DNA of 55,037 nt from a virus: IMG/VR virus record IMGVR_UViG_3300005253_003498, positions 1-55,037 of that record; one strand, given 5' to 3'. Position 1 is the stretch's first letter. Each line of letters begins with the position of its first letter. Both the position numbers and the translations under genes were made by a program. Under the pieces are notes generated by a model. The model saw only the letters and a list, made by a program, of their open reading frames with translations, searched no databases and had not been told where the DNA came from. This document shows, piece by piece, positions 1 to 55,037 of the stretch.

Positions 1-84
1 GCCCATTCCTGAATTAGCAGCCTCCTTCGCATATTGTGCCAACTCTTCCACCTGAAAGACGTGTAATTGTTTCTCGCTATTCAT
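1..84 (-). CDS. hypothetical protein, N-terminal fragment (runs off left edge)
   Basis: The first 28 codons of a minus-strand gene are visible, beginning MNSEKQLHVFQVEEL. A GGGAG Shine-Dalgarno lies 8 bases before the ATG. It follows the preceding virion-region gene after a purine-rich spacer. Too little is present to name a function. Confidence 0.55.
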   Translation of the reverse strand, partial: MNSEKQLHVFQVEELAQYAKEAANSGMG

Positions 85-3857: not shown

Positions 3858-5093
3858 TTACTTGCCGTCAAGCGACTTCTTTAGCTGGTCGACCGCGGCG
3901 GCTTCCGTCTTGATCTCCGCACTGAGGTCTTCGGCGCTCCGCTTGGCCCCCATTTCGGACGCGGCCGCCTGGGCCCGCGACTCTCTGACTCGCTCGACTG
4001 CACGTCCAAGAAATACGGACGGCCGAAAGCGGTGCAAGGCGCTCTCCTCGCCATTGCCGGCTTGCTTGCGTCGACGGGCCATACCACGCAACAGCAGCAC
4101 GCCACCGGCCACTGCCAACACGATCCAACCGGAGGCTGCGGTACCCGTGGCCACCAAGCCGCCGGTAGTAGAATGCTCCCCGCGCATGGCCGACATCACA
4201 CCGATCGACAGAAAGCCGACCAGTCGTTTATCGCGAGTGACCACGATCGCAGGGGTGTCGGAACGGCGAACGAACGGATACTGCTCAATCGAATCTTCCC
4301 ACTTCACCGTGCGGATCTTCAGTTGTAGATCGTATTTCTCACGCAGCCGCTCGATCATTTTCTCGGCGGCCTTGGCCTTGAGCTTCTCACCGAGACCTTC
4401 CGGGTCGATGATCAAAATCACTTCGGGATACTCAGCGTATTCACCGGCGTCCGGTGCGTCATCGGGAGCCAAGTCAGGTACGTCGGGGATCAGCGGCGAG
4501 AGGTCCGGGATGTACGGCGAAAGGTCTGGTCGATAAGGCGGCGGTGTTGGCCGATAACGATCATCCGGCGGCCCCCGGAAAAACCGTTTCACGAACGCCC
4601 GAATCTTCGCGAGCAGTCGCTTCACCAGACCCTTGGCATCCCCGTCGTAGCCGGTCATCCTATCGACGGTTTGAAACGGGAAGACGTTTGATCCTTGCGG
4701 CGGATACAAAACCAACGTCGGGTAGCCACTGATCTTGAATCTCTGAAACCGAAACCGCTGGCTTCGGCTACTGGTCGAGTAGACATTGAAATGACACCAG
4801 TCCGAAATGGCTTTCAGTGACGGGTCCTCCTGAAGGTCTCGTTTCAGCCGCTCGCAGGCGGAACAACCCGACTGCGTAAAAAGCGCCAGGTGCCACTTTC
4901 CGGAGTCGTCCAGAGGAACACTCTGAAGAACCGCTCCAACGTCCGGATAGTTCTCAATCCCGGCCACCCCCAGGACCTCGACACCATTGCCGTAGCTTTT
5001 CACGTCATCGAAATCAACGCCTTGACTGTAGCAGTCGTGCGAGTGGCAACCGATGAGTAACATCACTGCTACCACAAAAACGATTCTCTTCAT
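3858..5093 (-). CDS. lipoprotein with thioredoxin-like domain and C-terminal membrane helix
   Basis: The start chosen is the ATG 8 bases after AAGGAGG; an upstream in-frame ATG lacks this. The 411-residue product opens with a lipoprotein signal (KRIVFVVAVMLLIGC, lipobox Cys16). It then has a thioredoxin-like domain with a CSAC redox motif (Cys77/Cys80) and the cis-proline region SGYPTLVLYP. A Pro/Asp-rich linker (PDLSPYIPDLSPLIPDVPD) and a second alpha/beta domain (about 225-300) follow. A transmembrane helix (WIVLAVAGGVLLLRG, about 318-335) and a charged coiled-coil tail complete it. It probably acts at the envelope as a disulfide-active or redox-sensing protein. Such a protein is unusual in a phage late operon. 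Confidence 0.85.
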   Translation of the reverse strand: MKRIVFVVAVMLLIGCHSHDCYSQGVDFDDVKSYGNGVEVLGVAGIENYPDVGAVLQSVPLDDSGKWHLALFTQSGCSACERLKRDLQEDPSLKAISDWCHFNVYSTSSRSQRFRFQRFKISGYPTLVLYPPQGSNVFPFQTVDRMTGYDGDAKGLVKRLLAKIRAFVKRFFRGPPDDRYRPTPPPYRPDLSPYIPDLSPLIPDVPDLAPDDAPDAGEYAEYPEVILIIDPEGLGEKLKAKAAEKMIERLREKYDLQLKIRTVKWEDSIEQYPFVRRSDTPAIVVTRDKRLVGFLSIGVMSAMRGEHSTTGGLVATGTAASGWIVLAVAGGVLLLRGMARRRKQAGNGEESALHRFRPSVFLGRAVERVRESRAQAAASEMGAKRSAEDLSAEIKTEAAAVDQLKKSLDGK

Positions 5094-5106
5094 CGCTTCA
5101 TCCTCC

Positions 5107-5316
5107 TTAAGGTCTTGGTGCATTTGTTGACTTGTCGCAATCTATTTCCAACTGCGCTGTTCTTGACTCTAATCTCATCAATCTATCTTCTATTTCTTCT
5201 TTTTGCGCTCCAAGATCACTACCAATTCTAGGACCACAACAGAAGAACAGTACTACCACCAGCAGCAGCAGACGCTCCACCATTAGAAACACTAAGTACG
5301 TCTTTCTCACAATCAC
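5107..5316 (-). CDS. small membrane-anchored coiled-coil protein
   Basis: The same frame is open far upstream, but the likely start is the GTG overlapping the upstream stop (GTGA), giving 69 residues. Residues 8-27 are a strongly hydrophobic helix ending LFFCC, which could be a lipobox. A short coiled coil follows (KEEIEDRLMRLESRTAQLE). The length and layout resemble an Rz/Rz1 or unimolecular spanin, and it sits among envelope-acting genes. The lysis role is only inference. Confidence 0.6.
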   Translation of the reverse strand: MIVRKTYLVFLMVERLLLLVVVLFFCCGPRIGSDLGAQKEEIEDRLMRLESRTAQLEIDCDKSTNAPRP

Positions 5317-25933: not shown

Positions 25934-26521
25934 CTAATAGAGGCGAACCTCCCAGAAAACTGTATTGAATCCCGGGACGGTTCCCCACTGGACAGAGTAC
26001 GTCGAAAACTCGACTACATGATCTTGATAGGTATCAAGTAAGTGCTCCAACCACTCATAGCTATTTAGACAAAGGAATCGGGATAGCAACGTCTTTGCTA
26101 CCAGCCCATAGGCAGAAAGACACTGATCGGCTAGTGCATCGCGCATCGGCTTAACTACAAACGTGTAAGTCAAATCCAACCCCCAGATACCTCGCTGCAC
26201 TTCTCCCTGGAAAATTGTCTTCTCAGTAGGTGCCATAGCACTGATGTAAAGCAACGACCTGTCAAACTTACTTGTAGCCTCAATCCATTTTGCACCTGAT
26301 TCTTGCTGAGTTACATTATACCAGGTCTCTGCCCCAACCACTCGGTTGCGGATATGAATCAGTCCCGCATAGCCTGCGCAGCGGTAGGCTGCATAGTTAT
26401 CCCAAGTAGGCGAAGCGTTGCCGAATTCTCCAGCGGCATAGCGTGCAACGAAGTCACGCTTCGTTAGCACCGGTCTTGGATTGTCTGTGTTTTTCGCAGG
26501 CGGTATAGGGGTTACTGTCAT
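25934..26521 (-). CDS. hypothetical protein in hypermodification cluster
   Basis: The ORF is open further upstream, but the ATG at 26521 after GGGAGAAG keeps the overlap with the thymidylate-synthase homologue to 68 bases. The ~195-residue product contains FVARYAAGEFGNASPTWDNY, IHIRNRVVGAETWYNV and a long helical C-terminal part. No signature was recognised. Its placement between the MazG-like and TS-like genes makes it a candidate factor in modified-nucleotide handling. Confidence 0.65.
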   Translation of the reverse strand: MTVTPIPPAKNTDNPRPVLTKRDFVARYAAGEFGNASPTWDNYAAYRCAGYAGLIHIRNRVVGAETWYNVTQQESGAKWIEATSKFDRSLLYISAMAPTEKTIFQGEVQRGIWGLDLTYTFVVKPMRDALADQCLSAYGLVAKTLLSRFLCLNSYEWLEHLLDTYQDHVVEFSTYSVQWGTVPGFNTVFWEVRLY

Positions 26522-27566
26522 TCTTCTTCTTCTCCCAATTTTGCTGACGTTTCCTGAGCCAGAGCGTGCCTGCAATTCTCCAATCGTCTGCCCATACACG
26601 GTCGATGTGATTAAAAGCGCTAGCACTACTACCAATATACCTTCGCTCCTTATGAGCCCGGAATGCCATCATCATCGGCTGAGCCACACTTTTTAGGAAT
26701 GGTTCCTCGAAGGATCTGTCGATAGAATCAATGAATGCCTTACATTCCGCGTCAAAACGCTTTGGATGAGCAACCAGCTGCGGACCTAGGTTTACTCGCT
26801 GACTTTGGTCGTAGCTCATAGTAGGCTCGTCTGTACTGGCTCGCGTGTAATCATCTATCCACTCGCTTGGATGCCATCTACTCACATAAGCGTGAAGGTT
26901 ATTCGTGAGTTGGTGATAAACACCTACATCAACACCAATACAAGCTGCCAGATATTCCTGTAAGAAAGAGAAGTGGACAACATTTGCACCGAGCATCCCC
27001 CAGATCAGGTCGTTGCTGCGATTGCAAACAGTCATGTCTAGCCGCTTGTTTTGAACTGAGAAATAAGCATGAGTGTTACAAGGCTTGTCCTTGGTAAGCG
27101 CCCCTGCTCCAAGATCAGCTAACGAAGACCACATTTGCAAAACACAACGCCGGCTGTCTGGATCCTTTCTCAGCTCATCTGTAATCTCTTGCAACTGGTC
27201 AAACGAAGTTGGAGAACTTCCATGAGCAAAGAACTGTCGCCAGCGGTAGCCATAGGCGCCGTTCAGCGTTTTACCATCGTCGCTGTAGTCTTTTATCTGA
27301 CTATTGTAGTATGCCAACGGCGCTACATCATTCCGGCCAGCAAGCATCCACAGTGACTCGAACAGATGAAAGAACGGGTTACAGTCGCGCGCCTGATTGA
27401 ACAGCACCCGCTCGCGAGGATGAGTGTAAGTCACAATTACTGGCTCGACAACCTTGATAACATCTCCGTTCCTGCTAGAGGATGTTGCTGTAGGGATTCT
27501 GTGGGTCTGAATACCTGAAACAATTCCTCGGAAAGCTTGGTTGACGTTACGATAGAACAGGTGCAT
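26454..27566 (-). CDS. thymidylate synthase homologue (candidate dUMP hydroxymethylase)
   Basis: This 370-residue protein has a complete TS fold: GAYGYRWR (104-109), phosphate-binding DSRRCVLQMW (138-147), catalytic Cys163 in DKPCNTHAYF, and NRSNDLIWGMLGANVVHFSF (182-201). Cellular ThyA has PCH and QRSxDxxLG at these places, so the active site is altered (CN, W-G-M). The same is true of the deoxypyrimidine hydroxymethylases of phages. With the DNA kinase nearby, dUMP hydroxymethylation to hmdUMP is the more likely reaction, but ordinary TS activity is not excluded. Confidence 0.85.
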   Translation of the reverse strand: MHLFYRNVNQAFRGIVSGIQTHRIPTATSSSRNGDVIKVVEPVIVTYTHPRERVLFNQARDCNPFFHLFESLWMLAGRNDVAPLAYYNSQIKDYSDDGKTLNGAYGYRWRQFFAHGSSPTSFDQLQEITDELRKDPDSRRCVLQMWSSLADLGAGALTKDKPCNTHAYFSVQNKRLDMTVCNRSNDLIWGMLGANVVHFSFLQEYLAACIGVDVGVYHQLTNNLHAYVSRWHPSEWIDDYTRASTDEPTMSYDQSQRVNLGPQLVAHPKRFDAECKAFIDSIDRSFEEPFLKSVAQPMMMAFRAHKERRYIGSSASAFNHIDRVWADDWRIAGTLWLRKRQQNWEKKKNDSNPYTACEKHRQSKTGANEA

Positions 27567-30333: not shown

Positions 30334-30540
30334 CTACACCTCTTCTAATGTCCCGGTAAACAGATGGGATCCGTTCTTCTCTTCAGTAAGAACACCGAGA
30401 GACCCGCCACAAGTGCAAACATATAAGAGCAGCTTTGTCACGGACTCTGACGAAACAAATTCGGCAGACTGTGCGCCAATAATCTCGTCAAGACACCAGT
30501 CCCACTCCCACTCCTTAGCACACCATGGACACTTAATCAT
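30334..30540 (-). CDS. zinc-ribbon small protein
   Basis: This 68-residue protein has CPWCAKEW at the N-terminus and CTCGG later, giving a four-cysteine zinc ribbon around an acidic middle. Overlaps of 8 bases with the upstream HMUDK-helical gene show coupling. Possibly a small DNA- or protein-binding adaptor. Confidence 0.65.
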   Translation of the reverse strand: MIKCPWCAKEWEWDWCLDEIIGAQSAEFVSSESVTKLLLYVCTCGGSLGVLTEEKNGSHLFTGTLEEV

Positions 30541-31441
30541 GTTCTACACTCCCAGGGTACTTGCGTTTCATTCTACCACTATCCTGCCATAGCGCGCGCT
30601 CGTACTTGTCCCATTCACAAAGTGAGTGTTCTACCTCACGCATCTCAAATACAGGCATCCCTTTGCCCTCAAAGCGAAACCGCTGTACTACCGCGAGCAG
30701 GTCTTGCATTACCTCAAGATAATTGCTGCTGACCTTGACACGGGTGGTTCTTCCTTTTTTGTTAAGACCTGGAGTCTCTCCCTGTAGTCTCAACAGCCCT
30801 CTACTAGCCCCTGGCCCGGGATTGCACCATGTATTCACATCTGATGCATCCTCTAGTAAGTAAGTATAACGCAAATCACAAACGATCTCGTAGGACATGA
30901 ATCCGCCAAGAAAGGAGAACTGTTTCAACTCTTGCCAGAGCGCTTTCAGTCGACAGTCGTCAAGACAGACCTGAACCAACCGCCCCCTCTGATTCCATAG
31001 GTTGTCAATAGCGTCGCAGACGTTCGGTATTTTACACCCTTTGGGACCATTGCCGGCTTTGATCATGTAAGCACCAGTAAATACTGGTGGCGGTAACCTT
31101 CTAAGCATTCGAATAGCAAATTTCTTGCGCCAGTTCTTCAGCAAGTTGTGTTCAACCAAAGCCTGACCTGTTGAGATACGATTGAACCACCGGAAGATCA
31201 CTGTCGCCATAAGTACTGTATGATGATCTCGTAACGGGTCTCGGATGTTCTCTCGGAACCAGACCGTTGTTTTGTCGTGCTCACGGTATGGATTTGTAAA
31301 GAAGTACGACTGAAGCACCTCATCATCCGTCCAAGGCTTAGGCTTCCCTGCCTTACGCTTCAGGTAGATGCTATGGCGCTCTTTGATCCAGTACAGAAAC
31401 CGTGCTTGCGGTGTCAGACTTGCTACTTTCCAGGTTTTCAT
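30533..31441 (-). CDS. HMUDK-helical / alpha-glutamyl-putrescinyl-thymine pyrophosphorylase-like protein
   Basis: The ATG overlaps the upstream stop (TAATG), giving 302 residues. The N-terminal pattern FLYWIKERHSIYLKRKAG, KPKPWTDDEVLQSYFFTN and YREHDKTTVWFRENIRDP is the signature I associate with the helical domain of phage 5-hmdU kinase/aGPT-pyrophosphorylase proteins. Proteins of this group help replace the phosphorylated hmdU intermediate in DNA with an amine or amino acid. Which final base is made cannot be told. Confidence 0.75.
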   Translation of the reverse strand: MKTWKVASLTPQARFLYWIKERHSIYLKRKAGKPKPWTDDEVLQSYFFTNPYREHDKTTVWFRENIRDPLRDHHTVLMATVIFRWFNRISTGQALVEHNLLKNWRKKFAIRMLRRLPPPVFTGAYMIKAGNGPKGCKIPNVCDAIDNLWNQRGRLVQVCLDDCRLKALWQELKQFSFLGGFMSYEIVCDLRYTYLLEDASDVNTWCNPGPGASRGLLRLQGETPGLNKKGRTTRVKVSSNYLEVMQDLLAVVQRFRFEGKGMPVFEMREVEHSLCEWDKYERALWQDSGRMKRKYPGSVEHD

Positions 31442-32067
31442 TAGATTTTTCGAGCGCGGCTCCAATCCTTCTGTATTTTCAAAATAAACTCCTCTGGATC
31501 CATCTCAAACTTTTCCCTGTTGCATCTAGGGCACGCGATACGTATATTATCTCGGCTGCCTCTACCACCGCGTTTCACAGGAATGTAGTGATCAGCCACA
31601 TAACCAGTGATCTTCAAGTCACACCCACGGTATTCGCATCTACCACCAGCAATTTCCAACCTCTCGTCAATCATGTCTTGCGTAAAGTCTTCACGGACAG
31701 GTCCCCCTATTACCTTCAAGTATGCACTCAAGACATAGTTGCGAAAGGGACCATATTCATTATTTCGTTTTAACTTATCACCTCGTTGCAACAGGGCATT
31801 TAACGAAAATTCACGGCCGTCTTGAGTTTCTCTTATATGATTGCGGACGTCTTCTAGTGTATATAAACGTCCTAGCACAATCTTCGAGATGGGTGCCAAC
31901 AGCTCCTCTACAGCAGAAGGAATTCCAGACTTCTTGATACCGTTCCCATCCCAGTGTTCGCTTACAACAGCACACAACTCGCGAGTTGTGCTCGTCACTG
32001 CGTCCTTCTTCCAGCCTACATACCTACACTTCTTTCTTTTTTTCTTCAGCTTAGGTATTTTAGGCAT
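31441..32067 (-). CDS. HNH endonuclease
   Basis: The ATG 4 bases after TTGGAGAG gives 208 residues. The C-terminal HNH module shows GGRCEYRGCD, ADHYIPVKRGGRGSRDNI and ACPRCNREK (zinc Cys plus DH...N...N). The N-terminus is Lys/Arg-rich (KLKKKRKKC). It may be a homing-type or packaging nuclease. Its neighbour position to hypermodification genes also fits a nuclease against unmodified DNA. Confidence 0.85.
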   Translation of the reverse strand: MPKIPKLKKKRKKCRYVGWKKDAVTSTTRELCAVVSEHWDGNGIKKSGIPSAVEELLAPISKIVLGRLYTLEDVRNHIRETQDGREFSLNALLQRGDKLKRNNEYGPFRNYVLSAYLKVIGGPVREDFTQDMIDERLEIAGGRCEYRGCDLKITGYVADHYIPVKRGGRGSRDNIRIACPRCNREKFEMDPEEFILKIQKDWSRARKI

Positions 32068-33037: not shown

Positions 33038-33610
33038 TTAGACACTTACCCCTTCACTCCAGTTCTTAGGATGGTATTCAATCGAGACGGGGGTTGGTAT
33101 CCCGATGTCGTCTCCACCCTGCTCCATCAGTTTTTGTATCTTCCTGATCTTTGGTAAACTGCCTGGCACTCTAGGTTTTGCATACCTAGACATAACACAC
33201 CTCCCTTGTTCCGCTGGGAAGTCAAACACAAGTTCGTCGTGGATCTGCATCACCATATGGTAACCTCGCGACTTTGGCTTCGCATTCAATTCGTTGAGGT
33301 ATACCTGGCAACGAATCATCGCCTTCATCATCCACCAGCAGGCCGTCCCCTGCGACCAATAATTAAGCGGAACCGTAGGTAGAATTCTACCATAATTCGT
33401 GCGCGTACAAAGAAGTGGGTAACCGCGCTTAGGGTCTACCGTCTTGTCAGGCATTGTCTCAACATAGCCGTGCTTCTCAGCATACTCAATCAGCTTTTCA
33501 TTCAGTAGCTTGGACTTGCGGAATCTACCTGCTATTCTGCGCTGCGCGCCGGGTACGTGATAGGCTTTGTCTGCTGTTCTCAACATAGCCGTGCTTCTCA
33601 GCATACTCAA
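33038..33610 (-). pseudogene. DNA polymerase, C-terminal part (motif C)
   Basis: This 190-residue frame carries polymerase motif C (QIHDELVFDFP) and the end of the palm. Residues 13-51 repeat the end of the upstream ORF because of the 121-bp duplication. The first dozen residues are read from the wrong frame of the repeat. Removing one repeat unit joins this part in frame to the upstream ORF and gives a 701-residue polymerase. Confidence 0.85.
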
Positions 33611-33698
33611 TCAGCTTTTCATTCAGTAGCTTGGACTTGCGGAATCTACCTGCTATTCTGCGCTGCGCGCCGGGTACGTGATAGGCTTTGTCTGCTGT
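33457..33698. repeat. exact 121-bp tandem duplication inside DNA polymerase gene
   Basis: Copy 1 (33457-33577) and copy 2 (33578-33698) are identical by eye. The unit starts TCTCAACATAGCC and ends TTTGTCTGCTGT. 121 is not a multiple of three, so the duplication breaks the frame. Confidence 0.95.
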
Positions 33699-35264
33699 GC
33701 CACTCTGCTCTACTGCGCCATACTGCACGGCGAAGTTACCGTTCTTTGCCCACTGATACCATGTATCAGCGTACTCCTTCTTAGCCTTCAACAATCCCTT
33801 AGGATCGTTATGGTCCCATTTGTCAGGGTGCAGGATGGAAAACACCAGCAAGTGATTGCTGCCGAAGAATGGGGGCTCATCAGGCTTCTCGAATAGCTCG
33901 ATCTGCTCCGTCTCTCCTGACTTGTAAGCCGGCAATCGCAGCTCTATGTTCTGTGCATCAAGGCTCCACCATTCCCGTCCAGGTGCAGGACCAAAGCAGT
34001 ACCGCAGATTGGATCCTTTCTGCTTCGAGATGTTCTGTTCGTTCGGATTCTGACTGCTCCACCGTAGCGTATCAGTACCAGTCGGGTTCAAGGACGGATG
34101 AAGACGGAACCAATCAGCTTCCTTAGTATAATTTGTTCCCCCGGAAGCAGATGGGGAGGTTACGATTAAAGGCAACCAAAATCTTCTATATCCTTCCATA
34201 TAAGCAAGTGCGGTGTCTCGCTTGCGCTTTGTCAGCAACGAGTCGATAAAGAGCTTGGCTTTGCTGCGTCTTGGCAAACTGACTTGATAATCCTCCATGA
34301 CTTTCTTGTCTAAAGAAGGCTTACCTGTCTTCTGGCTCTTTCTTAACACACTCAGCTTCAACACGTCAAAGATGAATGTCGTAAGTGACTTGTTATTACT
34401 AGACTTCGGGAGCTGTAAGTCGTAATCGTAACTCTTGGCAAGATTAGTGCAAACCCTTCCAGCCTCTCCAGACTCTCTTGTGTACTTATGCTGTAGTTCA
34501 GTTAGTCGACTACCGCTGATGGTTACTCCATGGCTTTCCATCTGGCTCACGATAGGGAGGATTTTCAATCTCTCCTGGTAAATTTTCCATAGATTACGCC
34601 TTCGTAGGACTTTTTGTTGCTCCTTGAAAAGCAAGATCGTCACTTCACTATCACTGTTGCCATACTCCGCACACACTTCCCACCACGGATGTTGCTGATT
34701 TCCCGTCCATATATAACTTTCTTCTTTTGCAATTGCTCGTGGAAGCCACATATCGTTCTTCCAAACGGTCCCTCTTGCGCTCGGCATCTGAGGCAGTCCA
34801 ACTCTTGCGATTTGCCAGTTAGGGTATTTACTCTTAGCAATGCGGCGCGCTTCGTTTGTTGCCTCTTTAATTGCATCCTCGAACGGCTTGACGTTGATTC
34901 CAAGGTACATCAAGGCCATTGTAGTAAGATCATGAGGGCGGTTGCTGGCTAGAAGATGACCTGCCAGTAGAGTATCATAGACTTTACCCCAATCCCAATT
35001 TAGCTCCATACTATGAAACGCAAACACGGTTCGCAGGGCGGCTACGTCGAACTTGGGATTTTGTAGAACGATCTTGTCAGCCCAATCAATCTTAGCCTGG
35101 ATTTCTTTCAAGTCGTTCCTAGGCACTCGCGGTTGTCTTGTTACCGGGTTTACGTTCCATGTCCAGTAGGTCTGGAGGCCATCATCATCAGTTAATTGGA
35201 CCATAAACGGTTTGGCGCCATGACAGAAGTCAAGTCCAGTAGTTTCAACGTCTAAGCCAATCAT
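33525..35264 (-). pseudogene. family A DNA polymerase, N-terminal part (3'-5' exonuclease + motifs A and B)
   Basis: This is a 579-residue frame. The exonuclease motifs are GLDVETTGLD (Exo I), QNPKFDVAA (Exo II) and YGNSDSEV (Exo III). The polymerase part has TDTLRWSSQNPNEQNI, motif A WWSLDAQNIELRLPAY and motif B WAKNGNFAVQYG (Lys, Phe and Tyr kept; the usual Arg four residues before Lys is Tyr). The last 17 residues are out-of-frame nonsense from the duplication. The enzyme lacks motif C here and would be inactive for synthesis unless the duplication is removed or bypassed. Confidence 0.9.
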
Positions 35265-48215: not shown

Positions 48216-48272
48216 ACAGTTGTAATGCAAAACACAACCACACCCCCTGAAACCCCTTACCGGAGTGCTACG

Positions 48273-48533
48273 ATGAAAAAGACTTGGACCGTCAAAGGCG
48301 ACTGGAAACCAGATGCCAGAAACCGGCTTGGCGTATTGCTGCTACAGCAAGAACAAGAAGCACGGAAGGCGCAAAGAAAAACACGCCATGCCAAGCCAAG
48401 CAGTTTTGCTGGTGTCCTACATACGTATAGGACTAAGAAAGAAGCCGAAGAAGGGCTACAGAAGTACCGCGCAGGACAGATGGGGCATACGGCCACGATG
48501 ATGGAAAACTTCCGCATCGTGCAAGTTGACTAA
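48273..48533 (+). CDS. small early protein 1
   Basis: The ATG 8 bases after CGGAG gives 86 residues. It is basic and helical (VLLLQQEQEARKAQRKTRHA) with a C-terminal MMENFRIVQVD. First member of the small-protein array, with leader CCCCCTGAAACCCCTTACCG similar to the repeated leader. Function unknown. Confidence 0.7.
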   Translation: MKKTWTVKGDWKPDARNRLGVLLLQQEQEARKAQRKTRHAKPSSFAGVLHTYRTKKEAEEGLQKYRAGQMGHTATMMENFRIVQVD

Positions 48534-48565
48534 TCCACCCTTTACCCAAACCTAGGAGCGAAACG

Positions 48566-48727
48566 ATGAAGGTCACACGAACTAGGATCGACGGTCGGAT
48601 GATTGAAGCTTGGAAAAAGGGCAACACTTTCTATTGTCAAGATGTGATGTGCGCAGGTATTGTAGGCCGTGGTCGAAGTGAAAAAGCGGCCCTAACTTCA
48701 CTACTTCGCAAGCTAGAAGAATTTTAG
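48566..48727 (+). CDS. small early protein 2
   Basis: A 53-residue ORF (MKVTRTRIDGRMIEAWKKGN ... GRGRSEKAALTSLLRKLEEF) has AGGAGCG before the ATG. It looks like a tiny beta-alpha domain. Function unknown. Confidence 0.65.
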   Translation: MKVTRTRIDGRMIEAWKKGNTFYCQDVMCAGIVGRGRSEKAALTSLLRKLEEF

Positions 48728-48770
48728 TAACCCCCACTCACCGCGCCGTCACCCTAGCCGGCGCGCTAGC

Positions 48771-48813
48771 GGTTACACTACCCCCTAAACCCTACTACAG
48801 GAGTGTTACGATG
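48771..48813 (+). repeat. repeated leader, copy A
   Basis: GGTTACACTA, then CCCCCTAAACCCTACTACAG, then GAGTGTTACGATG. It is identical over at least 43 bases to copy B at 49450-49492. Related leaders occur at 49840-49881 and 50061-50106; GCGCTAGCGGTTACACTAC precedes both copy A and the 50.06 kb leader. Confidence 0.8.
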
Positions 48814-48996
48814 ACAGGTTATGCAATCTACGATTACGATACAAAACTCTACTTCGTAACAGACATGGTCTGGAATAGTGACCCGCAACCCCAATCCATC
48901 TGGGATACAGAAGCAGAAGCGCAAGACGCATTATCAATCGGTACCCGGGTGGGTGTCATGTCGGGTGATCTAGGAATCTGTGTGGTTGTAGTTTAG
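48811..48996 (+). CDS. small early protein 3
   Basis: This 61-residue acidic protein (YAIYDYDTKLYFVTDMVWNS, EAEAQDALSIGTRVGVMSGD) is preceded by the repeated leader with CAGGAG. Upstream, GCGCCG and CGGCGC form a hairpin. Function unknown. Confidence 0.7.
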   Translation: MTGYAIYDYDTKLYFVTDMVWNSDPQPQSIWDTEAEAQDALSIGTRVGVMSGDLGICVVVV

Positions 48997-49092
48997 TAAC
49001 CTGGTCCCAAGATCGGCCCCGATAGCGCAACCAGGTGTCGCAACCCGGCGGGGCACTGTTTACACGATACCCGCAACCCCATAGGTGACGTG

Positions 49093-49413
49093 ATGAAAAC
49101 CTACCAAGTCGAAAAAGAAATTACCCTGCATGTTAGTGCTGAAGGCTCAGGCAAGGACTGGTACTGGTCCTTCCTAAATTGGGAAGGGCTTGGGGCTGAC
49201 GAAATGGATGCTATCGCCAACTCCAATGGGGACGAATTTATAATCTGGGACGCCGTCGTTACTCGAGACGGTGACGACTTTCTGATCCAAGGTTGTACAG
49301 AATGTAGTGGCGACGGTGAAGCCTGCGAAGTGCGGATTGACAAAAGCCTTGTGACCTTCGATTACAACTACGGTTGTCGAGATAGTACGTTCTTGCAAGA
49401 ACTGGGCGACTAG
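49093..49413 (+). CDS. small early protein 4, tandem paralogue
   Basis: This 106-residue acidic protein (KTYQVEKEITLHVSAEGSGK, DWYWSFLNWEG, RDGDDFLIQGCTECSGDGEA) is closely paralogous to the next gene. ATG with AGGTGA before it. Mimicry of nucleic acid by acidic surface is a possible role, but unproven. Confidence 0.75.
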   Translation: MKTYQVEKEITLHVSAEGSGKDWYWSFLNWEGLGADEMDAIANSNGDEFIIWDAVVTRDGDDFLIQGCTECSGDGEACEVRIDKSLVTFDYNYGCRDSTFLQELGD

Positions 49414-49449
49414 TGTCCCCGTTACCGCGCCCTACAGGGGCGTGGACCC

Positions 49450-49492
49450 GGTTACACTACCCCCTAAACCCTACTACAGGAGTGTTACGATG
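49450..49492 (+). repeat. repeated leader, copy B
   Basis: Identical to copy A over 43 bases, ending in the ATG. Preceded by the hairpin CGCCC TACAG GGGCG. Confidence 0.8.
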
Positions 49493-49831
49493 AAGACTTA
49501 CCGAATTGAAAAAGCGGTTGCCCTGTTTGTTAGTGCTGAAGGCGCAGGCAAGGATTGGTACTGGTCCTTTCTGAACTGGGAAGGGCCTGGAGGTGCTGCT
49601 ATGGATACACTAGCCGCAGCCGATGACGAACCCGTAGTCGTTGACGCCGTCGTTACCCGAGACGGTGACGACTTTCTGATCCAAGGCAGTACAGATTACC
49701 ATGGCTGCGGCGAAGCCGTCGAGGTACGAGTCGACAAACGATTCGTAACTGCTGTTGGCTACAACTACGAAGACGAAGACGACGGGTCCCTAGGCGACAG
49801 CCACACGTTCCTGCCAGAACTGACATCCTAA
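49490..49831 (+). CDS. small early protein 5, tandem paralogue
   Basis: This 113-residue protein has KTYRIEKAVALFVSAEGAGK, DWYWSFLNWEGPGG and VTRDGDDFLIQGSTDYHGCG. Very acidic C-terminal (YEDEDDGSLGD). Same fold as the upstream paralogue. Confidence 0.75.
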   Translation: MKTYRIEKAVALFVSAEGAGKDWYWSFLNWEGPGGAAMDTLAAADDEPVVVDAVVTRDGDDFLIQGSTDYHGCGEAVEVRVDKRFVTAVGYNYEDEDDGSLGDSHTFLPELTS

Positions 49832-49877
49832 GGTACGCCGTTCACTACCCCCTTAACCCTACAAGAGGAGTGCTATC

Positions 49878-50039
49878 ATGAAAGAAAAAGTCAAGTTTCA
49901 GTCTGGTACCCACACGGTCACCGTCAAGATCGACAAGCAACTAGGCAAGATCGCCTACCTACCCGGTTCAGGCTGGCACTGTGTAGACAAGCACAATGTG
50001 GCCTACGCCGCTTGCGGCATACGTCTGTCCAGCAAGTGA
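49878..50039 (+). CDS. small early protein 6
   Basis: This 53-residue protein (MKEKVKFQSGTHTVTVKID, KIAYLPGSGWHCVDKHNV) has the leader with AGAGGAGTGCTATC before its ATG. Small beta domain. Function unknown. Confidence 0.65.
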   Translation: MKEKVKFQSGTHTVTVKIDKQLGKIAYLPGSGWHCVDKHNVAYAACGIRLSSK

Positions 50040-50103: not shown

Positions 50104-51270
50104 ATGGCTTACCGTATTAAGGACTACGTTGACACCCTTATGGATATACTATCCCGAAAGGACCGTTCATGGGACAAGGACAGGCTGATCAAGGAAGCTC
50201 GTCGAGAGCGGAACTTTCCGAACGACCGCAAACTCATTATGATATTAGACGTCTTGGTAGCTACCGGCAATGTGACTCAGTATGGGACTGGGACCTACGC
50301 ATCCTTCGTACTCAATAAAGAGACCGTAAGACTAGACGATCACACTGAGCAGCGGATCAAACGTCTACAGGACCAGGTCGCGATTGGAGCCGCAGAAGTC
50401 GAACGGTTTGGGAAGGTTGCCCGCGAACAGGTTGCCGCCGCCGAAGAATGGGTGAATAAAGCATCGTCTAGTATTGCAGTCGTCCAACTGAAGATGGGCA
50501 GCAAAGTCGTCAAGCAGACGAAAGGACTGTTCCACAATCAGTTCGACAAAATACTGAAGCTGGCAATGGCCCGGATGAACATTTTCATCTACGGCCCAAC
50601 CGGGTGCGGCAAGAGCCACATCTGCGCCCAGCTTGCTGAAGCGCTGAATCTATCGTTCTCATTCGTTTCCTGCACGAGTGGTATGAGCGAGGGTATCTTA
50701 GGTGGTCGACTACTACCAGTCGGCAAGCAGGGAACCTTCGAGTACGTCATTAGTGAGTTCATCCGTGCCTACGAAAACGGTGGAGTGTTCTTGCTGGACG
50801 AGATTGATGCGGCTGACCCGAACGTCCTGCTACTGGTCAACGCAGCGTTGACCAACGGCAAAGTCGCCGTGAGCAACCGCCCCGAAGAACCGTACGCTAC
50901 ACGGCACGCAGACTTCGTGTGCATCGCAGCGGCTAACACGGTAGGCACGGGGGCCGACCGCCTCTATTCTGGCCGGAACAAGCTAGACGCCGCAACCCTT
51001 GACCGGTTCCAGATCGGTAAGATGGTGATGGACTATGACGAGAGGGTCGAGGTTATTCTCTGTCCGAACAAACAGCTCCGCACGAGGCTTCTAGGATACC
51101 GTAAAGCCATTATGGCTCACCGCCTGGAACGAGTTATGAGTACGCGGTTCATGCGGGACGCCCACAAGATGGTAGGTGATCACGGCTGGTCAGATGCAGA
51201 TGTGGACAGGGCATTCTTTTCTGGGTGGCGTGAAGACGAGGTAAACAAAGTCAAGAGCTACCGTAGCTAG
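50104..51270 (+). CDS. MoxR/CbbQ-type AAA+ ATPase
   Basis: In this 388-residue protein Walker A is YGPTGCGKSH (163-172), Walker B GGVFLLDEIDAAD (226-238) and sensor 1 VCIAAANTVG, all of the AAA_5/MoxR type. The N-terminal 130 residues are a helical extension with a small winged-helix-like part. It is followed by a vWA-like gene, the normal MoxR partner. Such pairs remodel or activate metalloenzymes and other complexes. Confidence 0.9.
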   Translation: MAYRIKDYVDTLMDILSRKDRSWDKDRLIKEARRERNFPNDRKLIMILDVLVATGNVTQYGTGTYASFVLNKETVRLDDHTEQRIKRLQDQVAIGAAEVERFGKVAREQVAAAEEWVNKASSSIAVVQLKMGSKVVKQTKGLFHNQFDKILKLAMARMNIFIYGPTGCGKSHICAQLAEALNLSFSFVSCTSGMSEGILGGRLLPVGKQGTFEYVISEFIRAYENGGVFLLDEIDAADPNVLLLVNAALTNGKVAVSNRPEEPYATRHADFVCIAAANTVGTGADRLYSGRNKLDAATLDRFQIGKMVMDYDERVEVILCPNKQLRTRLLGYRKAIMAHRLERVMSTRFMRDAHKMVGDHGWSDADVDRAFFSGWREDEVNKVKSYRS

Positions 51271-54731: not shown

Positions 54732-54761
54732 GTAAGAAAAACTCAAGGAGAGAAAGGTGTG

Positions 54762-55037
54762 ATGTCTACAATTAGAATGGACAAATCAATGGCCACTGCA
54801 CTGTTAAGGAGAAAAGCGATGTTCAAGATTGAGCTGAACAAAGAGGCTGCTGCCGTCCTGTTGCGCTGCTTGGCTTACGGCGGAGCATCCATCAGTAAAG
54901 AGGAGTATGATAGCGGTCTAGCAACCATTATCGAATCGAACGTCCAGATGATCCGCAAGAACATCTGCAACGGTCTAAGCGCAACACTTCTGGAGGAGTG
55001 CCTATCGTGCAAAACAACCTTGAAGAAAATGAATTGA
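54762..55037 (+). CDS. hypothetical protein with two in-frame starts
   Basis: The ATG at 54762 follows AAGGAGAGAAAGG. A second in-frame ATG at 54820 is preceded by its own AAGGAG at 8 bases. The long form has 91 residues, the short 72 (MFKIELNKEAAAVLLRCLAY). Both could be made. The stop is the last codon of the window. Confidence 0.7.
   Translation: MSTIRMDKSMATALLRRKAMFKIELNKEAAAVLLRCLAYGGASISKEEYDSGLATIIESNVQMIRKNICNGLSATLLEECLSCKTTLKKMN

What the first reader, a model, noticed from the sequence alone, without database searches (positions are those of the whole stretch)
33457..33698. DNA polymerase split by an exact 121-bp tandem duplication
The two 121-base copies (33457-33577, 33578-33698) are identical. 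Because 121 is not divisible by three, motifs A/B and the exonuclease lie in one ORF and motif C (HDE) in another. The span 33038-35264 minus 121 is exactly 702 codons, so deleting one unit restores a 701-residue family A polymerase. Options are a real recent duplication, a reversible recombination switch, or an assembly join (an untrimmed k-mer overlap of a circularised contig would look just like this).
Basis: seen in the sequence. Interest (0 to 1): 0.8.

Follow-up and report, generated by a model that had tools for sequence, protein, structure and literature searches.

The report
Probable assembly duplication splitting phage polymerase
A phage DNA polymerase gene reads as two pieces because 121 bases are written twice in a row, and the most likely cause is an assembler that joined two contigs without removing their shared 121-base overlap, not a new kind of split polymerase.

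Summary
Two identical 121-base copies lie at 33457-33577 and 33578-33698, with no match beyond 242 bases, and they shift the frame of a family A DNA polymerase (ORFs 33525-35264 and 33038-33610, minus strand). All 31 relatives found (24 distinct) have one open polymerase here. The split exists only in this record.

In 80 Microviridae contigs of the same collection, exact end repeats pile up at assembler k-mer lengths, and 121 is one of them (127 x8, 123 x6, 121 x4). The window repeats exactly one 121-mer and no 122-mer, and its junction has no microhomology.

The record has no end repeat, probably cuts a lysin gene at base 1, and lacks the tape measure gene. Closed relatives are 60-70 kb. An untrimmed overlap at an internal contig-contig join is more likely.

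A real, recent, gene-breaking duplication remains possible (about 0.23). A functional split polymerase or recombination switch has no support: no SD-like sequence before ORF 2, no integrase or resolvase, no recurrence. Reads, or the assembler's k, would settle it.

The parts
33457..33577 (.). copy 1 of the 121-base unit
33578..33698 (.). copy 2 of the 121-base unit, identical and directly adjacent; junction 33577/33578 is the only sequence without a counterpart in relatives
33525..35264 (-). polymerase ORF 1 (579 aa): exonuclease, motifs A and B, then 17 frameshifted residues
33038..33610 (-). polymerase ORF 2 (190 aa, TTG): unit encoded again, then motif C (HDE) and C-terminus; no SD-like sequence before the candidate starts
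1..84 (-). first 28 residues of a probable CHAP lysin gene cut by the record's left end
   Evidence: weak match, E = 2
54759..55037 (+). 92-aa ORF whose stop codon is the last three bases of the record

Best explanation
The second 121-base copy is most likely an assembly artefact. In an assembly whose final k-mer length was 121, neighbouring contigs share exactly 121 bases. Here two contigs meeting inside the polymerase gene were joined without removing that overlap, so the shared 121-mer was written twice. The phage in the sample would then carry one uninterrupted family A polymerase of about 701 residues, as all its relatives do. Shown here: the exact duplication, its restriction to this record, the use of k = 121 in this collection, zero microhomology, and the intact gene in relatives. 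Inferred: that this record's sample was assembled with k = 121, and that the join was made by the software.
For: Exact end-repeat lengths of 80 Microviridae contigs of the same collection pile up at 127 (8), 123 (6), 121 (4), 55 (3); the 121s are L109 and L140 (3300020043), L155 (3300020044) and L166 (3300020017). The CheckV paper explains such lengths as assembler k (PMC8116208). The window holds exactly one repeated 121-mer and no repeated 122-mer, and the array has zero extension. All 31 polymerase relatives have a single open frame; 24 are distinct. The gene order on both sides of the site agrees with relatives, so the join is in the right place and only the copy is extra. T4 tandem amplifications arise at 6-10 bp microhomologies (PMC9391042); there is none here.
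Against: The assembler of this record is unknown. The k = 121 contigs come from only three datasets. No internal tandem repeat with a period equal to a k was found in roughly 2.5 Mb of other sequence from the collection, so such internal joins are rare. A contig made only of observed k-mers would need reads across 33577/33578. The usual JGI settings are k = 123 or 127, which do not give 121.
Confidence: 0.7

Rival explanations
1. A real, recent tandem duplication in the sequenced phage population, by replication slippage or illegitimate recombination, which breaks the polymerase gene. The carriers are defective, or are complemented by intact genomes in the same cells, or revert by recombination between the copies.
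For: Exact identity fits a recent event. Assemblers with k of 122 or more would resolve such a repeat without trouble. Tandem amplification is well known in phages (PMC9391042). One relative, G004, has an exact in-frame 93-base tandem duplication.
Against: No microhomology at the ends. The length equals a k used in the collection. It destroys a gene intact in all 31 relatives, yet would have to be the majority form to enter the consensus.
Confidence: 0.23
2. Untrimmed k-mer overlap of a circularised contig that was later rotated.
For: Period equals a k in use; the last three bases of the record are a stop codon.
Against: No end repeat; probable lysin gene cut at base 1 and not continued by the 55037|1 join; no tape measure gene; closed relatives are 60-70 kb; in G004 the homologues of the two window ends are about 17 kb apart.
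Confidence: 0.03
3. A functional arrangement: a two-protein polymerase, a +1 frameshift that fuses the parts, or a reversible recombination switch.
For: The two ORFs overlap by 86 bases, and the split falls between motif B and motif C, so in principle both halves could fold together or be fused by a +1 shift.
Against: No SD-like sequence before ORF 2. No relative shows it. The window encodes no detectable integrase or serine recombinase. The boundaries are blunt and without inverted repeats of 40 bases or more. ORF 1 ends in frameshifted residues.
Confidence: 0.03

Closest known systems
k-mer-length repeats left by de Bruijn graph assemblers at contig ends (CheckV, PMC8116208)
   Same: Exact repeat whose length equals a k in use in the collection; no match beyond k
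   Different: Here it is internal and in tandem, not at the two ends of a closed contig
Phage segmental tandem duplications, as in T4 (PMC9391042)
   Same: Head-to-tail copies in a phage genome
   Different: T4 cases begin and end at 6-10 bp microhomologies and are under selection; here there is no microhomology and the gene is broken
Family A DNA polymerases of related uncultivated phages (L003-L008, L045-L073)
   Same: Colinear at about 46-62% identity; same exonuclease, motifs A, B, C
   Different: Relatives have one uninterrupted reading frame

Membership tests
Family A DNA polymerase | DNA_pol_A domain with motifs A, B and C | tested here: met
   Present, but spread over two ORFs
Family A DNA polymerase | Motifs A, B and C in one reading frame | tested here: not met
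   Motif C is in ORF 2 only; relatives all have one frame
k-mer overlap artefact | Length equals a k-mer length used in the collection | tested here: met
   121 among end-repeat lengths, 4 of 31
k-mer overlap artefact | No match beyond k and no repeated (k+1)-mer | tested here: met
k-mer overlap artefact | No reads cross the copy-copy junction; source assembled at k = 121 | not testable with these tools
   Reads and assembly log are not held
Untrimmed end of a circularised contig | Record closes as a complete circle at 55037|1 | tested here: not met
Microhomology-mediated tandem duplication | Short shared sequence at both ends of the unit | tested here: not met
   Zero shared bases
Site-specific recombination switch | Recombinase gene and crossover sites | tested here: not met
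   No PF00589 or PF00239 match in the window; no inverted repeats of 40 bases or more. The record is incomplete, so a recombinase outside it is not excluded

The most novel reading that the evidence does not exclude
The duplication is real and common in the phage population, and its gain and loss by recombination between the copies toggles the replicative polymerase between an intact and a split form.
Probability: 0.02. Interest if true: 0.75.

Novelty: not a real feature. Interest (0 to 1): 0.12.

Why it matters
It is a caution more than a discovery. A gene that looks split in an uncultivated virus record can be a k-mer-length join, and comparing the duplication length with end-repeat lengths in the same collection is a cheap way to recognise this. 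If the duplication were real it would be a phage population carrying a broken replicative polymerase, which would be worth following.

Tried and rejected
Exact-pattern scans for the unit and for the 55037|1 join in viral contigs: no match, so no near-identical record (the tool may leave such records out). Near DNA match in phages and distant match in plasmids: none. Pfam and PHROGs on the 28-residue left-end peptide: none; it was placed only by a weak tblastn match (E = 2) to the N-terminus of a Streptococcus phage CHAP lysin, and no related record shows a similar lysin by a pattern search. A 12-residue match in L035 was noise. Genome contigs holds no polymerase relative. A scan of 0.8 Mb of T4-like contigs for internal exact tandem repeats found none. 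One literature search for a phage polymerase split by a tandem duplication listed two papers, neither opened nor evidently about this; only open-access papers are held. Structure prediction was not used: it would not separate the explanations.

Full report
Observation. The duplication is exactly as described: 33457-33577 and 33578-33698 are identical, period 121, 2.0 copies, with no further matching base on either side. The polymerase is read on the minus strand. ORF 1 (33525-35264, 579 aa) and ORF 2 (33038-33610, 190 aa) match complementary parts of Pfam DNA_pol_A and of Taq polymerase.

What relatives show. Two searches of the viral collection found 31 relatives of the polymerase. All 31, representing 24 distinct sequences, have one tblastn segment in one frame with no stop inside; one of them (L073) covers only the C-terminal part. 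In the alignment of the nearest six, ORF 1 follows the relatives up to GYVE, the last residues encoded by copy 2, and then departs, while ORF 2 follows them from the unit onwards through motif C. The extra copy is therefore an insertion peculiar to this record, and the flanking sequence on both sides is joined correctly.

Is the record a rotated circle? The evidence is against this. The record has no end repeat. Four relatives with exact end repeats of 144, 99, 123 and 127 bases are 60.6, 68.2, 70.2 and 66.4 kb long, against 55.0 kb here. The tape measure protein of G004 (PhageMin_Tail) has a match in 9 of 18 other related records searched, and is absent from the window both by direct search and by a profile of the relatives. 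In G004 the homologues of the window's two ends are about 17 kb apart, with tail genes between. At base 1 the window cuts a reading frame whose 17 residues VEELAQYAKEAANSGMG resemble the start of a CHAP lysin of Streptococcus phage Javan291 (VEEVVQYAIDLANSGMG); the E-value is weak (2), but both lie at the N-terminus. The record is therefore most likely a fragment.

Is 121 an assembler length? I used small circular viruses of the same collection as a ruler. Of 80 whole Microviridae contigs, 31 have exact end repeats, and the lengths pile up at 127 (8), 123 (6), 121 (4) and 55 (3). The CheckV authors explain such lengths as the k-mer of the assembler, and a JGI study states SPAdes k up to 127 (PMC9789639). 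The four contigs with 121 come from datasets 3300020043, 3300020044 and 3300020017. So k = 121 was used for some contigs here. This was a prediction of the artefact reading that could have failed. In the window one 121-mer is repeated and no 122-mer is.

Weighing. Under a log-uniform length prior from 10 to 2000, a real duplication has a length of exactly 121 with a probability near 0.0016; an artefact drawn from the observed k spectrum has it with a probability near 0.13 (4 of 31). Zero microhomology occurs in 56% of random endpoints but is not what T4 duplications show. A real duplication would also have to have become the consensus while breaking a conserved gene. Against this, internal artefacts of this kind are rare: in roughly 2.5 Mb of other IMG/VR sequence I found no internal tandem repeat with a period equal to a k, and only two other exact cases, 93 bases in frame in G004 and 32 bases in G020. 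An assembly with k of 122 or more would also resolve a real 121-base duplication without trouble. I put the artefact at about 0.7, a real gene-breaking duplication at about 0.23, the circular form at 0.03 and any functional reading at 0.03. These are judgements, not computed posteriors.

Function. Nothing supports a working split polymerase or a switch: no SD-like sequence before the candidate starts of ORF 2, no integrase or serine recombinase in the record, blunt boundaries, no recurrence in relatives. The decisive tests are the sample's reads and its assembly log, neither of which can be reached from here.

Noticed in passing
26454-27566 and 30533-31465 (minus): A thymidylate synthase homologue (phrog_5131) and a 5-hmdU DNA kinase domain (PF18723, E = 3e-47) suggest that this phage hypermodifies thymine through 5-hydroxymethyl-dU.
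   Followed up: no
48232-49881: Four copies of a 45-base leader, two of them identical, ending in a GGAGTG...ATGA start-site sequence, before small plus-strand ORFs, plus a 125-base repeat at 75% identity.
   Followed up: no
L020:197-383 (G004:60197-60383): An exact in-frame 93-base tandem duplication in a methyltransferase gene near the end of a related contig; real or artefact not decided.
   Followed up: partly
L127, L170, L172 (dataset 3300020043): Microviridae contigs of 7.9-8.8 kb, about twice the usual size, in which two genome copies about 82-87% alike are strung together, probably strain chimeras of the assembly.
   Followed up: partly
1-84 (minus) and 55035-55037: The record begins inside a probable CHAP lysin gene and ends exactly on the stop codon of a 92-aa ORF.
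   Followed up: partly
3858-5123 (minus), 50104-51270 (plus): A thioredoxin-like domain in a 421-aa protein among the late genes, and an AAA-type ATPase matching phrog_249, listed as porphyrin biosynthesis.
   Followed up: no
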